Positions 48,628 to 58,476 of a stretch of 64,000 bases of DNA are shown in pieces. The notes under the pieces are model-generated. The model worked only from the letters and a program-made list of their open reading frames with translations. It was not told where the DNA came from and did not search any database. Origin of the DNA: Hymenobacter aerilatus (GTDB lineage: Bacteria > Bacteroidota > Bacteroidia > Cytophagales > Hymenobacteraceae); NCBI RefSeq assembly GCF_022921095.1, contig NZ_CP095053.1:4506501-4570500 (forward strand). Reading direction: 5' to 3'. How positions within the stretch are numbered: position 1 is the first letter of the stretch; each line of letters begins with the position of its first letter. Made by a program: the position numbers and the translations under genes.

Positions 48628-48733
48628 GTCTGTCATCCTGAGCTTGCGAAGGACCTTCTCACGCTGGAAAGAAGGACGTGAGGACGAGTCGTTCCAGCGT
48701 GAGAAGGTCCTTCGCAAGCTCAGGATGACAGAC
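48628..48733. repeat. GTCATCCTGAGC-family inverted repeat, perfect 42-bp arms
   Basis: Arms 48628-48669 and 48692-48733 are perfectly complementary over 42 bp around a 22-bp centre. Both arms carry AGCTTGCGAAGG. It lies between the CDF and glycosidase genes on the plus strand, 27 bp past the CDF stop. Confidence 0.95.
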
Positions 48734-50527: not shown

Positions 50528-50675
50528 GAAGTGCTGCGTAAAAATACGTCTGTCATCCTGAGCGGAGCGAAGGACCTTTTCACGGCAGAACGATTAACGT
50601 ACCAACGACTCGTTCTAGCGCGATAAGGTCCTTCGCTCCGCTCAGGATGACAGACGTATTTTTACGCAGCACTTC
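50528..50675. repeat. GTCATCCTGAGC-family inverted repeat, perfect 51-bp arms
   Basis: Arms 50528-50578 and 50625-50675 are perfectly complementary over 51 bp, the longest in the window. Flanks GAAGTGCTGCGTAAAAATACG are included; similar flank GAAGTGCTGAGTAAAAATACG occurs before the copy at 55201. It is between the PLD-like and MGMT genes. Confidence 0.95.
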
Positions 50676-54256: not shown

Positions 54257-55162
54257 ATGCTGCCTGTTGCCTGGGCGCCCTGCTATGCCCACCCGCTACC
54301 CCAAAACCATCGGTTTCCCATGCTCAAGTACGAGCTGCTGCCCGCGCAGCTGCTACGTGAGGGCATCATCACCGAGGCCGACTTATTTGCGCCCGCACCA
54401 GCGGCCGCCGCAGATATCCTGCGCGTGCACACAGCCGACTACTACTACCGCCTTACCACAGGCCAGCTGACGCGGCAGGAAGAAAGGGCCACCGGTTTTC
54501 CATGGAGTTCACAGCTGATAATGCGGGAAGTAACTATCCTAGAAGGCACATTGGAAGCCGCCCGCCGGGCGTTGCAAACGGGGGTAGCCCTCAACATTGC
54601 CGGTGGTACCCACCACGCTTTTGCCGATAGGGGCGAGGGCTTCTGCCTGCTCAATGACCAGGCAGCCGGTGCCGCCTACCTGCTGGCGCAGCCGGAGCTA
54701 GGCATACAGAAAGTGCTGATTGTGGACCTAGACGTGCATCAGGGCAACGGTACGGCGCGCATCTTCGAGCAAGAACCGCGCGTGTTCACGTTCTCTATGC
54801 ACGGTGCCCGCAACTATCCTGGTCGCAAAGAGCACTCCGACCTGGACCTACCCTTGCCCGACGGCACCACCGACACGGAGTACCTCCGGCTGCTAGCCGC
54901 TACCCTACCCCGCCTGCTCGACGAGGTGCAGCCCGACTTCGTATTCTACCAGGCGGGCGTTGATGTGCTGGCCACCGATAAGCTGGGCTACCTCAGCCTC
55001 ACCCGCGAAGGCTGTCGCCAGCGCGACCAGCTAGTGCTGCGCCTCTGCCACCAGCACCGCCTACCCGTGGTGGTGTGCATGGGCGGCGGCTACTCCCCCC
55101 GCCTAGCCGATATTCTCGATGCCCACGTTAATACCTTCCGCACCGCCGCGGAGATATGGTGA
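54257..55162 (+). CDS. Histone deacetylase-like amidohydrolase
   Basis: 301 residues of the zinc-dependent HDAC superfamily: start WAPCYAHPLP...RFPMLKYELL, catalytic H119-H120 in GGTHHAF, zinc ligands D159 and H161 in DLDVHQGNG, D236 in AGVDVLATD, and final MGGGYSP. Bacterial relatives act on acetylpolyamines or acetylated proteins. It is preceded by the tRNA terminator, so it is separately transcribed. Confidence 0.9.
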   Translation: MLPVAWAPCYAHPLPQNHRFPMLKYELLPAQLLREGIITEADLFAPAPAAAADILRVHTADYYYRLTTGQLTRQEERATGFPWSSQLIMREVTILEGTLEAARRALQTGVALNIAGGTHHAFADRGEGFCLLNDQAAGAAYLLAQPELGIQKVLIVDLDVHQGNGTARIFEQEPRVFTFSMHGARNYPGRKEHSDLDLPLPDGTTDTEYLRLLAATLPRLLDEVQPDFVFYQAGVDVLATDKLGYLSLTREGCRQRDQLVLRLCHQHRLPVVVCMGGGYSPRLADILDAHVNTFRTAAEIW

Positions 55163-55200: not shown

Positions 55201-55310
55201 CGTGTGTCATCCTGAGCGCAGCGAAGGACCTTATCACGCGTGAACGACCATCGTATTGGCGACTCATTCCAATGTGAGAAGGTCCTTCGCGCCGCTCAGG
55301 ATGACACACG
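55201..55310. repeat. GTCATCCTGAGC-family inverted repeat, 32-bp arms
   Basis: Arms 55201-55232 and 55279-55310 match at 30 of 32 positions. The right arm runs into the 3' end of the methyltransferase gene and contains its stop codon. Confidence 0.9.
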
Positions 55311-56033
55311 TTTTTCGTTTACCATTTCACTATACAGCACCACTTGCCAGCGGAAGGCCCAGCACCAGCGGAGAGAGTAATGCTGAATGCCGGCTGCTGC
55401 CAGCAGGCGTTGCCAGTCTTGGCGAGTGAAGGCGCGGGCGACGGATAACGGCGCATCGTGCTGTACGAGGTAGGAGCCACCCAGCAGGCGCGTAAGCCAG
55501 CGGATACTATGGTAGGCGATAGGGTGGCGATGCAAATCGTTGATAACCACAGCTACGCGGGCCTGATGATGCCACTGACGCAATAGCGGCACCAGCTCCG
55601 CATCGGTGAAATGGTGGCAGAACAGGCTGCATGTAAGTACATCAAATGGTTGCCGATGAAATGCTTCCGAAAAGATATCCTGCTGCTGAAAGCTGATTTC
55701 GGGGTAGGCATGGGCCTTATCGGCAGCGTACTGCAACATAAAGGCATTGGCATCGATGCCCGTCAGCGCAACGGGTAGGGCTTGCCGCCGTGCCCAGCGG
55801 GCAATGTGCCGGAGCGTGTCGCCGCCGCCGCTGCCGAGGTCGGCCAGGCGGAGCAGCTGGTTGATCGGCCAGTGCGGACGCAAGGCTGCTAGCGCCATCA
55901 GCACCGGGCGGTAGCCACCCAACCACGTATTAATGGTTTCCAACTCATCTAGGTTCTGCCGCAACGCATCGGAAGCCAGCGTCAAATCATCCATCAGCTC
56001 CGCCTGCGTAGACCGTCGGCTTAAATCGGGCAT
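55296..56033 (-). CDS. SAM-dependent methyltransferase of the polyketide cluster
   Basis: 245 residues, class I fold: SAM loop LADLGSGGGDTLR (about 64-76), LTGIDANAFML, then FDVLTCSLFCHHF. It lies downstream of the type III polyketide synthase and FAD enzyme on the same strand, with an inverted repeat between, so it may methylate the polyketide. The last residues (EKRVSS) are encoded by an inverted repeat which supplies the stop codon. Confidence 0.83.
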   Translation of the reverse strand: MPDLSRRSTQAELMDDLTLASDALRQNLDELETINTWLGGYRPVLMALAALRPHWPINQLLRLADLGSGGGDTLRHIARWARRQALPVALTGIDANAFMLQYAADKAHAYPEISFQQQDIFSEAFHRQPFDVLTCSLFCHHFTDAELVPLLRQWHHQARVAVVINDLHRHPIAYHSIRWLTRLLGGSYLVQHDAPLSVARAFTRQDWQRLLAAAGIQHYSLRWCWAFRWQVVLYSEMVNEKRVSS

Positions 56034-56076
56034 GGGGTGGATAATGAGATGATTAGTGATGAATAATAAATATGGA

Positions 56077-56175
56077 TGTCATCCTGAGCAGCGCGAAGGA
56101 CCTTCTCACGTGTGCGTCACTATCAAACGATTTCGTTCACGCGTGAGGAGGTCCTTCGCGCTGCTCAGGATGACA
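56077..56175. repeat. GTCATCCTGAGC-family inverted repeat, 34-bp arms
   Basis: Arms 56077-56110 and 56142-56175 match at 33 of 34 positions, both with AGCAGCGCGAAGG. It separates the polyketide synthase and methyltransferase genes. Confidence 0.93.
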
Positions 56176-56185
56176 CACGGTTTTT

Positions 56186-57298
56186 TCACCACTTCACCTC
56201 CATCAACAGCGCTTCTAGCGTAAGCCCTGGGCCGAAGGCGAAACTGAGGGCTGGAGCGCCATCCTGATCCGGCGTGAGGGTACGCAGTAGCTCGGCCAGC
56301 ACAAACAGTACCGTCGCCGACGACATATTACCGTAGTCGCGCAGTACTTGGTAGGCAAAGCGGTTGTCGTGGTGCGTGAGGCCCAGGGCTTGCTCGATGG
56401 CTTCCAGAATACGCCGTCCGCCTGGATGAATCGCAAACAGCTTGATGTCGCTGAGCCGGACTGGCAGGCGAGCCAGTAGCCCATCGGCCAAGTGCTGGAT
56501 GCCTTGCTTGATTAGGCCCGGCACGTAGGAGGAGAGCGTCATCTCAAAGCCGAAGTCGTTGATGTGCCATGCCATATCAGCACGGCCATCGGGCACTAAG
56601 TCGCAGTGAAAAGCTTGCAGCGCGAGGCTAGGGCCGTGGGAAGCCGGCTGGGCCTGCACCAGGGCTGCCGCCGCGCCATCGCCAAACAACGCATTGGATA
56701 TCAAATCGTCATCGTCGCGGCGCTTCTGAAAGTGTAGGGTGCATAGTTCGGCGCATACGACTAGTACACGGGCCTGCGAATCGGCCCGGCAAAAGGCGTC
56801 GGCCAGCTTTAAGCCATTGAATGCAGCGTAGCACCCCATAAAGTTGACGCACGTGCGCTGTACGTGCGGGCTCAGCCCGAGGGCCTCTACCAGCTCAATA
56901 TCCAGCCCCGGTGCATACATTCCGGTGCAGCTCACCGTTACCAGATGCGTGATGCTGTGGGGTAGGGCCGCATCCTGCATCTGCGCCAGGCAGGACTGTA
57001 CCGCTGCTACCGCCAGCGGCAACGCATGGGCACGGTACTGCTCCATGCGCGGCCCTACCCTCGGAAAAGGCTCTAGCTGAGGAGTATTAGGGAAAAAAGT
57101 GAAGTTGCCGTTTTCTTCAGCATAATCCGGCAGTACGGAGTAGCGCTGTCCAATGCCAGAAGCCCGGTACAACGCCCGCAGACGGCGGGTTTCGGCTTCG
57201 TCAAACGACAAAGCATCGGCCATGAAACGGGCAATCTGAGATTGAGGAACGCGATGGGGAGGATTGGCCGTGCCAATAGCACACAGGTAGCTGGTCAT
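56186..57298 (-). CDS. Type III polyketide synthase
   Basis: A chalcone/stilbene synthase-like ketosynthase that extends an acyl-CoA starter with malonyl-CoA. The catalytic triad is complete: C156 in NFMGCYAA, H291 in AIHPGGRR and N324 in YGNMSSA. 370 residues from the ATG at 57298. Bacterial relatives make alkylresorcinols or alkylpyrones. Its FAD enzyme and methyltransferase neighbours are those expected for tailoring such a phenolic lipid; the exact product is unknown. Confidence 0.92.
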   Translation of the reverse strand: MTSYLCAIGTANPPHRVPQSQIARFMADALSFDEAETRRLRALYRASGIGQRYSVLPDYAEENGNFTFFPNTPQLEPFPRVGPRMEQYRAHALPLAVAAVQSCLAQMQDAALPHSITHLVTVSCTGMYAPGLDIELVEALGLSPHVQRTCVNFMGCYAAFNGLKLADAFCRADSQARVLVVCAELCTLHFQKRRDDDDLISNALFGDGAAAALVQAQPASHGPSLALQAFHCDLVPDGRADMAWHINDFGFEMTLSSYVPGLIKQGIQHLADGLLARLPVRLSDIKLFAIHPGGRRILEAIEQALGLTHHDNRFAYQVLRDYGNMSSATVLFVLAELLRTLTPDQDGAPALSFAFGPGLTLEALLMEVKW

Positions 57299-57357
57299 TG
57301 AGGGTAGTATACGCAATTTGTAGCGGTTGCGACGGACCAACAGAGAAGAAGAATAGG

Positions 57358-58476
57358 TCAAAAAGGCTGGCCGTGCGTGCGGGCTACCAAGGCCTGCACT
57401 GCGCCGGGCCAGTGGCGCAGCCCGCCCACTACCCAGTTGCTGAGGTGGGGCTGCCCAAACAGCCGCTGTACCAGCCGCCCTACCCGCAGGCGGGCACCAA
57501 ACTGCTGCTGCCAGCTGCGGGCATAAGCTGTTTCCAGCGCTACCCTACTGCTATGGCCCTGCAAAAACTGGTGCGCGTGCTTAGCCGCTAGGCAGGCACC
57601 GTGCAGCGCCATGGCCATGCCGTTGCCGCACAAGGGTGTAATCAGACCGGCAGCATCGCCGCACAGAAGGACATGGTCTTCCACGCAGGATTTTGGCGCA
57701 AAGGAAATTTCGTTGATGACCTCGGGCTGTGGGTAGAGTTGCTCGGCATTGGTCAGGATAGCGCGCAGGTGCGGGTTGCGCATAAGTACCTGTGCTTCCA
57801 GCTCGGGAATAGTGCCGTAGGTTTTCAGGTTGTGGCGGGTAGTGAGGTAGCAGAAGCACAGCTTGTCTTCCTCAATGGCTGAAAAGCCTGCGTAACCATC
57901 GGCAAAGTTGTGCAAGGAAATCAGGTCGCGGGTGTGGCCGGGGAGGCGCAGGTGGTACTTCACGCCCAGGTAGGGCGAGCGTTGCTGAAAGAAGGGCCGT
58001 TGCAGCTGCCGGTCCAGGTTGGCGCGCTTACCGTAGGTGCCCAGCACCAGCCGGGCGGTCAGCGTCCGGCCATCGGCCAGTGTCACATGGTGCTGGTCAG
58101 TGGCGGCATCATAGGCCACGGCGGTTACGGTAGCGCCTTGCTCTACCACCACGCCGCGTGCCTGGGCCAACTCGGCCAGGTAGTGGTCGAGGCGGTACCG
58201 ACTCACGCCAAAGCCACCCAGCCGGAGCGGAGCCGAAAGGAGGGTCCCGTTTGGCGCACTCACTTGCAGCCGGCTAATAGCAGCAGGACCTAACGGCTCG
58301 GGTGGTGCTCCTAAACGGTGGAGATACGGCACTACTTCCTTAGAAACGTACTCCCCGCATACCTTATGAAATGGATAGGTCTTGCGCTCCACTAGTAGCA
58401 CCGTGTAGCCACGCTGCCGTAGGTCGAGGGCCGCCGCCAGCCCCGCTAATCCGCCGCCGATTATGAGAACATCCAA
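57358..58476 (-). CDS. FAD-dependent oxidoreductase of the polyketide cluster
   Basis: 372 residues. Rossmann loop GGGLAGLAAA (7-16), then E30-R31-K; KVCGEYVS (about 39-46) and LLCGDAAGLITPLCGNGMAMA late in the sequence place it with the geranylgeranyl-reductase/aromatic hydroxylase group. It is 59 bp upstream of the polyketide synthase gene and likely hydroxylates or reduces its product. Confidence 0.87.
   Translation of the reverse strand: MDVLIIGGGLAGLAAALDLRQRGYTVLLVERKTYPFHKVCGEYVSKEVVPYLHRLGAPPEPLGPAAISRLQVSAPNGTLLSAPLRLGGFGVSRYRLDHYLAELAQARGVVVEQGATVTAVAYDAATDQHHVTLADGRTLTARLVLGTYGKRANLDRQLQRPFFQQRSPYLGVKYHLRLPGHTRDLISLHNFADGYAGFSAIEEDKLCFCYLTTRHNLKTYGTIPELEAQVLMRNPHLRAILTNAEQLYPQPEVINEISFAPKSCVEDHVLLCGDAAGLITPLCGNGMAMALHGACLAAKHAHQFLQGHSSRVALETAYARSWQQQFGARLRVGRLVQRLFGQPHLSNWVVGGLRHWPGAVQALVARTHGQPF

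What the first reader, a model, noticed from the sequence alone, without database searches (positions are those of the whole stretch)
55296..58476. Compact FAD enzyme - type III PKS - methyltransferase cluster
Three minus-strand genes encode the parts seen in bacterial phenolic lipid pathways: a type III PKS with intact Cys-His-Asn triad, a flavoprotein and a methyltransferase. In Streptomyces the srs operon combines the same three activities to make methylated alkylquinones. This suggests a resorcinol or quinone lipid in a gliding or pigmented Bacteroidota strain. No starter-unit enzyme is nearby.
Basis: partly seen in the sequence, partly recalled or inferred. Interest (0 to 1): 0.7.

Follow-up and report, generated by a model that had tools for sequence, protein, structure and literature searches.

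The report
Hymenobacter polyketide-prenyl lipid gene cluster
Three neighbouring genes in a Hymenobacter genome, plus a fourth far away on the chromosome, look like a conserved pathway for a greasy phenolic compound with an isoprene chain, and relatives that have this kind of polyketide gene almost always have the others too.

Summary
The three genes are real and intact: flavoprotein (FAD), type III PKS, methyltransferase (MT), in that order on the minus strand. The window is from a Hymenobacter.

The PKS is in 120 of 120 sampled genomes of the family, single copy in 119, so it behaves like a core gene. Among 295 genomes of the class, FAD and MT relatives were found only where a type III PKS is present.

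It is in all 54 genomes with this PKS subtype and near the PKS in 48. The window's own genome has it too, unlinked. In 5 of 7 such genomes of the same order outside the genus it sits between FAD and PKS, where the window has a 59-bp gap.

Closest described systems are hierridin hidABC and the Planctomycetota mtr-fdo-t3pks operon, but the PKS forms a separate clade and the FAD is only 27% identical to a picocyanobacterial counterpart. Resemblance to srs is functional only.

Most likely the pathway makes a prenylated, ring-hydroxylated, methylated resorcinol-type lipid. No product is known. New variant of a known kind.

The parts
57358..58476 (-). FAD-dependent monooxygenase-like protein (372 aa, TTG start); proposed ring hydroxylase
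   Evidence: Pfam DAO and FAD_binding_3; AlphaFold2 pLDDT 90.2; fold of flavin halogenases and aromatic hydroxylases; relatives in 49 of 54 subtype-i genomes and in 0 of 219 genomes without a PKS match
56186..57298 (-). Type III PKS (370 aa, ATG at 57298), triad intact; proposed resorcinol-type synthase
   Evidence: PF00195, PF02797; triad and Met at the CHS-F265-like site; AlphaFold2 pLDDT 95.5; 120 of 120 family genomes
55296..56033 (-). Class I SAM methyltransferase (245 aa); proposed O- or C-methyltransferase
   Evidence: Methyltransf_25 and others; relatives in 53 of 54 subtype-i genomes and in 0 of 219 genomes without a PKS match
56078..56174 (.). Palindromic repeat between PKS and MT (one of about ten paired copies in the window); probably not part of the pathway

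Best explanation
A four-enzyme pathway, three of its genes here and the fourth (UbiA) unlinked at G000:C1:132999-133850, makes a prenylated phenolic or quinol membrane lipid. Step 1 (inferred): the PKS extends an acyl starter, probably a long-chain acyl-ACP or acyl-CoA from ordinary fatty-acid synthesis, with malonyl-CoA and closes a resorcinol ring. Step 2 (inferred): the UbiA-type enzyme C-prenylates the ring. Step 3 (inferred): the flavoprotein hydroxylates the ring towards a hydroquinone. Step 4 (inferred): the MT methylates an oxygen or a ring carbon. Shown: the genes, their intactness, their co-inheritance and their order. Not shown: any chemistry, or the order of the steps. Because PKS and UbiA are in practically every sampled genome of the family, the product is more likely an ordinary membrane lipid or antioxidant than an occasional antibiotic (inference).
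For: UbiA is in 54 of 54 genomes with subtype-i PKS, 0 of 15 with subtype ii, 1 of 7 with the ICMT subtype, and 7 of 241 without subtype-i PKS in all. The UbiA profile was built from cluster-linked genes, so the independent part is the six subtype-i genomes where it is unlinked (all six have it) and the family sample (119 of 120). UbiA lies within 5 kb of the PKS in 48 of 54 loci. Six loci read FAD-(UbiA on the other strand)-PKS-MT, and the three Hymenobacter loci read FAD-PKS-MT. The window genome's UbiA keeps the motif residues conserved in A5. Isoprenoid context: four of 54 loci carry a gene clustered with IPP isomerase nearby (NCBIfam cut-off passed by the L056 copy, the one tested); ten of 54 carry a gene of a YceI-like cluster (Pfam checked for L047 only), though how common YceI is was not measured. 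Ring hydroxylation: three subtype-i genomes without this FAD (G015, G100, G220) have a 541-aa-class flavoprotein in the cluster region; the L056 (G015) copy has FAD_binding_3 and an aromatic-ring hydroxylase C-terminal domain and matches aromatic monooxygenase models best. Resorcinol chemistry: in the PKS tree subtype i shares a larger clade with hid-type PKSs, apart from subtypes ii and iii; Met at the F265-like site in 95 of 98 subtype-i rows and 53 of 53 hid-type rows, Val in 7 of 7 ICMT-type rows; PMC8086630 reports Met there for HidC's clade. The residue aligned with PKS18 Cys205 is Cys. PMC10896814: planctomycetal PKSs gave alkylresorcinols in C. glutamicum, singly methylated when the G. 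maris MT and FAD were added.
Against: No product is known from a Bacteroidota member in what I read. The starter is unknown. The FAD is 27% identical to a Cyanobium hid-type FAD; its fold scores best with halogenases (Z 36.5) and nearly as well with a geranylgeranyl reductase-like protein (Z 31.0); its top NCBIfam hit is the geranylgeranyl reductase family, below cut-off. The role of the G. maris FAD remained open in PMC10896814. Counts are not corrected for shared ancestry. UbiA is unlinked in the window's own family. Its NCBIfam hits are weak, so the prenyl substrate cannot be read. In G052 and G100 the UbiA match is split or holds stops, so it may be broken there or misread. One genome (G283, 61% complete) has UbiA with an ICMT-type PKS. 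The four gammaproteobacterial PKSs inside the subtype-i clade show no UbiA in the loci fetched and Ile, not Met, at the F265-like site. Met is also in 11 of 15 subtype-ii rows, so it does not single out subtype i.
Confidence: 0.58

Rival explanations
1. The triplet makes an unprenylated, hierridin-like methoxylated alkylresorcinol or alkylquinol; UbiA belongs to another, co-inherited pathway.
For: Hid-type and subtype-ii loci have PKS, MT and FAD without this UbiA. Planctomycetal PKSs make plain alkylresorcinols (PMC10896814). UbiA is unlinked in the window's family.
Against: UbiA is in 54 of 54 subtype-i genomes, near the PKS in 48, and in 0 of 15 subtype-ii genomes.
Confidence: 0.22
2. The PKS uses a short starter such as acetyl-CoA and makes an orcinol-type ring; UbiA adds a polyprenyl chain, and FAD and MT turn it into a ubiquinone-like methoxyquinone. 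The prenyl chain is the lipid anchor instead of a fatty chain.
For: UbiA, a flavin monooxygenase-like protein and a class I MT are the enzyme types of ubiquinone synthesis (recalled). Subtype ii, which lacks this UbiA, has fatty-acid-synthase-like genes instead, as if each subtype had its own source of a hydrophobic chain.
Against: Nearest relatives with known products use long acyl chains (PMC10896814 and PMC8086630). The PKS18 Cys205-like Cys is kept. Hymenobacter is described with menaquinone MK-7 (recalled).
Confidence: 0.12
3. The PKS is an alkylpyrone synthase and the other enzymes decorate a pyrone.
For: PKS18, a long-chain pyrone synthase (recalled), is among the closest solved structures by sequence and fold.
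Against: Separate from the ICMT-linked clade; Met, not Cys or Val, at the F265-like site; a ring hydroxylase is not expected for a pyrone (inference).
Confidence: 0.06

Closest known systems
hidABC hierridin operon (Cyanobium), read through passages of PMC8086630 and PMC10896814; Costa 2019 itself not read
   Same: MT, FAD oxidoreductase and type III PKS together; Met at the F265-like site. The orders MT-FAD-PKS, PKS-MT-FAD and FAD-PKS-MT are circular permutations of one another.
   Different: PKS 40% identical to a Cyanobium usitatum relative and in another clade; FAD 27% identical; no UbiA found in the hid-type loci fetched.
Planctomycetota mtr-fdo-t3pks operon (Gimesia maris; PMC10896814, abstract and passages read)
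   Same: The same three activities in an operon; its PKSs gave alkylresorcinols in C. glutamicum.
   Different: Window MT 33% identical to that of an uncultured Gimesia; FAD distant (127 bits against this FAD profile, where subtype-i relatives mostly score 400-535); no UbiA in the loci fetched.
Filamentous-cyanobacterial PKS-MT-FAD loci (L199 Pseudanabaena, L214 Thermosynechococcaceae)
   Same: Order PKS-MT-FAD; FAD 38% identical and 338-348 bits on the profile, nearer than the hid-type FADs.
   Different: No UbiA in the loci fetched; PKSs outside the subtype-i clade. That they match the hidC-hidA-hidB type of PMC8086630 is inferred from gene order.
srs operon of Streptomyces griseus (recalled; named in PMC8086630)
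   Same: PKS, methyltransferase and flavoprotein hydroxylase activities.
   Different: SrsA is placed in another PKS clade by PMC8086630; sequences not compared here.
Loseolamycin locus, Micromonospora endolithica (PMC7587189, passages)
   Same: A UbiA-family prenyltransferase gene, an MT gene and a type III PKS gene lie close together.
   Different: Acyl-CoA dehydrogenase in place of an FAD monooxygenase in the listed genes; the products are called alkylresorcinols; sequences not compared.

Membership tests
type III polyketide synthase | Chal_sti_synt N and C domains with Cys-His-Asn triad | tested here: met
   fold
hierridin-type (hidABC) operon | MT, FAD oxidoreductase and type III PKS clustered | tested here: met
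hierridin-type (hidABC) operon | PKS inside the hid-type clade | tested here: not met
   quick ML tree: window in an 84-row clade (97*), hid-type rows (my label) on another branch (53 rows, 93). HidC itself not in the tree; Cyanobium and Synechococcus rows stand in
hierridin-type (hidABC) operon | FAD protein of the HidB subfamily | tested here: not met
   27% identity to a Cyanobium FAD; separate in the FAD tree, with long-branch warnings
hierridin-type (hidABC) operon | Met at the CHS-F265-like site of the PKS | tested here: met
   Met254; rule from PMC8086630
hierridin-type (hidABC) operon | hierridin or alkylresorcinol product | not testable with these tools
   needs chemistry
srs operon | PKS of the SrsA clade | tested here: inconclusive
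   no SrsA sequence at hand; only the clade statement of PMC8086630
UbiA prenyltransferase superfamily (unlinked partner) | PF01040 above cut-off with Asp-rich motifs | tested here: met
   window genome's copy 75.3 bits against 34.2; motif columns kept
flavin-dependent halogenase (FAD gene) | Fx.Px.Sx.G motif (recalled) | tested here: not met
   FasV (8zop) reads F..P..S.G where the window protein reads LITPLCGNG (one halogenase compared)
geranylgeranyl reductase family (FAD gene) | NCBIfam TIGR02032 above cut-off | tested here: not met
   107.5 bits against 158.8
Flavin aromatic monooxygenase (FAD gene) | aromatic ring hydroxylation | not testable with these tools
   fold compatible, activity unknown

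The most novel reading that the evidence does not exclude
Hymenobacteraceae carry, as core genes, a second route to an isoprenoid-quinone-like lipid whose aromatic head is built by a type III PKS from malonyl-CoA and not from chorismate, then prenylated by a UbiA-type enzyme, hydroxylated and methylated: a polyketide counterpart of ubiquinone or, if the starter is long, of cannabigerol-type prenylated resorcinols.
Probability: 0.25. Interest if true: 0.9.

Novelty: new variant of a known kind. Interest (0 to 1): 0.6.

Why it matters
A type III PKS found in every sampled genome of a bacterial family, and tied to one prenyltransferase subfamily even where the genes are far apart, points to an undescribed membrane lipid in the ordinary biology of Hymenobacter, Pontibacter and relatives. 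It extends hierridin-type logic to Bacteroidota with a likely prenylation step, and single-gene deletions with lipid analysis would test it directly.

Tried and rejected
A second methyltransferase-like gene (k5, L231:6523-7305) is beside UbiA in 7 of 8 family UbiA loci fetched, but it is in 22 of 295 class genomes, 16 of which lack the subtype-i PKS, and in only 6 of the 54 that have it. I do not count it as a pathway gene.

The second PF00195 match in the genome (L108) has much stronger ACP_syn_III hits: a FabH-like protein, not a second type III PKS.

EboC identity of UbiA: no ebo model was among its NCBIfam hits; whether that library holds such a model was not checked.

Halogenase role for the FAD: not excluded by fold; the recalled motif is not matched.

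Geranylgeranyl reductase role for the FAD: not excluded. Disfavoured because 15 of 15 subtype-ii genomes have the FAD without this UbiA and because a hydroxylase-type flavoprotein stands in the cluster region in three genomes lacking it.

A tree with SrsA, ArsB, ArsC, BpsA or HidC was not possible; no such sequences were at hand. ICMT-linked PKSs served as the pyrone-type stand-in because BpsA's partner is an ICMT-type methyltransferase (recalled).

Literature searches listed no paper whose title or shown abstract describes this Bacteroidota PKS-UbiA association. They cover only open-licence PMC text, lists were cut at 10-20 rows, and five papers were opened, for passages only (one also for its abstract). 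PMC11925752 lists an antiSMASH 'Terpene, T3PKS' region without a similar known cluster in Hymenobacter psoromatis (passages); I did not check that it is this locus.
Full report
OBSERVATION. One search lists the three minus-strand ORFs at the stated coordinates, and Pfam names a flavoprotein, a type III PKS and a class I methyltransferase, all over curated cut-offs. The PKS most likely starts at the ATG at 57298, leaving 59 bp to the FAD stop codon. PKS and MT are 152 bp apart and that gap holds a palindromic repeat. The PKS triad is intact and invariant in all 188 rows aligned.

ORGANISM. The window PKS groups with Hymenobacter profundi (L203) and an unnamed same-genus genome, to which it is 97% identical. 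I take the window to be Hymenobacter, family Hymenobacteraceae, class Bacteroidia.

CO-OCCURRENCE. In 295 genomes drawn evenly from the class, 76 have a PKS relative at E<=1e-20, 61 the UbiA, 64 the FAD at E<=1e-30 and 68 the MT at E<=1e-15. I split the 76 PKS genomes at the gap (7.5e-57 to 9.4e-45) and by neighbours. Subtype i: 54 genomes. Subtype ii: 15, FAD-MT-PKS with a ketosynthase-like gene in 15 of 15 loci, a FabA/Z-like gene in 14 and a phosphopantetheinyl-transferase-like gene in 11 (domains checked for L099 only). Subtype iii: 7, PKS next to an ICMT-type methyltransferase (checked for L086 only). UbiA in 54 of 54, 0 of 15 and 1 of 7; FAD in 49 of 54, 15 of 15 and 0 of 7; MT in 53 of 54, 15 of 15 and 0 of 7; neither FAD nor MT in the 219 genomes without a PKS match. 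Seven genomes have a UbiA match without subtype-i PKS: five matches are weak or partial (122-230 bits), and the other two (G228, G283) are in assemblies 88% and 61% complete. In G052 and G100 the UbiA match is split or holds stops. Counts are not corrected for kinship. Within family codes f3, f4, f7 and f42, which hold both subtype i and other subtypes, UbiA goes with subtype i only; f47 is an exception through G283.

LAYOUT. Of 54 subtype-i loci, UbiA is within 5 kb in 48, MT within 3.5 kb in 47, FAD in 42. The commonest order is UbiA-PKS-MT-FAD (24). Six read FAD-(UbiA on the other strand)-PKS-MT: five from the window's order (of seven subtype-i genomes there outside the genus) and one from another order. 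The three Hymenobacter loci read FAD-PKS-MT. The window genome has UbiA at C1:132999-133850; the triplet is at 4561.8-4565.0 kb of a 5.14-Mb contig, so 4.4 Mb one way and 0.7 Mb the other if the contig is circular. The six subtype-i genomes without nearby UbiA (G000, G058, G188, G242, G158, G039) all have it elsewhere. In the family sample the PKS is in 120 of 120 genomes, two copies in one, and UbiA in 119 of 120, missing in G300. All 28 family loci newly fetched (L116-L143) show FAD-PKS-MT. So do the seven loci that I picked from four more genus codes, though in L228 the FAD reads in two overlapping frames. Rufibacter ruber (L222) is a named exception: neither MT nor FAD was found in its 6.7-kb stretch, which starts near a contig end.

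ENZYMES. PKS: pLDDT 95.5; the 50 VIA rows shown have Z 47.7-50.3, so fold does not choose a product. Met at the F265-like site: 95 of 98 subtype-i rows (many are close Hymenobacter rows), 53 of 53 hid-type, 11 of 15 subtype-ii, 0 of 7 ICMT-type, 0 of 4 gammaproteobacterial rows. FAD: pLDDT 90.2; best VIA rows are halogenases (PltA Z 36.5, rmsd 3.0, 360 aligned), then aromatic hydroxylases near 32 and a geranylgeranyl reductase-like protein at 31.0 (rmsd 3.4, 350 aligned). Five subtype-i genomes miss the FAD at the cut-off: in G015, G100 and G220 another flavoprotein lies in the cluster region; in G183 a partial FAD runs off the contig end; in G224 the contig ends inside MT. I read the first three as replacement by another ring hydroxylase; only the G015 copy was scanned. 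UbiA: PF01040 in L036, L038 and the window genome's copy, with weak NCBIfam hits only.

EVOLUTION. In a quick ML tree of 170 PKS rows, subtype i, Hymenobacteraceae and four Gammaproteobacteria form one clade (84 rows, SH-aLRT 97*); hid-type rows are on one side of a branch (53 rows, 93); subtypes ii and iii are separate (99* each). The program warns of long branches and odd composition. In the FAD tree subtype-i and subtype-ii FADs fall in one group (76 rows, 92) although their PKSs are far apart; the hid-type FADs lie across a long branch, again with warnings.

PRINT. PMC10896814 (abstract and passages) reports the three-gene operon for 58 of 96 planctomycetal PKS genes, alkylresorcinol products, and single, probably C-methylation when G. 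maris MT and FAD were added. PMC8086630 (passages) describes hid-like clusters in cyanobacteria, two gene orders, one cluster with a prenyltransferase, and SrsA in another clade. PMC7587189 (passages) lists a UbiA-family gene near losA. PMC9235831 (passages) describes an ebo-linked UbiA of marine Flavobacteria. The words 'Bacteroid' and 'Hymenobacter' do not occur in the main text of the first two.

VERDICT. The finding is real and conserved, and was only partly read by the first stage. The best reading is a four-gene pathway to a prenylated resorcinol-type lipid that is a core trait of Hymenobacteraceae. Product, starter and order of steps are inference.

Noticed in passing
window, for example 55206-55305, 56078-56174, 50552-50651, 48632-48729: Palindromic repeat with arms GTCATCCTGAGC: 22 half-sites with up to one mismatch in 64 kb against 0.24 expected, mostly in facing pairs. 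Two copies flank the MT gene.
   Followed up: partly
L088, L089, L091-L093, L096, L097, L099-L105, L107: Subtype-ii clusters join FAD-MT-type III PKS with fatty-acid-synthase-like genes (ketosynthase-like 15 of 15 loci, FabA/Z-like 14, phosphopantetheinyl-transferase-like 11): a type III PKS with an apparent dedicated acyl supply.
   Followed up: partly
L109 (Psychrobacter urativorans plasmid 5): A PKS 49.5% identical to the window's lies on a 49-kb plasmid with FAD and MT genes on the other strand and transposase-related and recombinase genes nearby; horizontal transfer is likely.
   Followed up: partly
L111 (Hymenobacter swuensis plasmid pHsw1): A relative of the window FAD (40.9% identity) follows an isonitrile synthase family gene and a TauD-type dioxygenase gene, with no PKS annotated in the stretch.
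   Followed up: no
L231:6523-7305: A methyltransferase-like protein without Pfam hit is beside UbiA in 7 of 8 family loci fetched but is not tied to the PKS across the class.
   Followed up: yes
window 54257-55162: A histone-deacetylase-family gene (PF00850) beyond the MT gene has a relative beside the cluster in both other same-genus loci examined (L033, L034).
   Followed up: no
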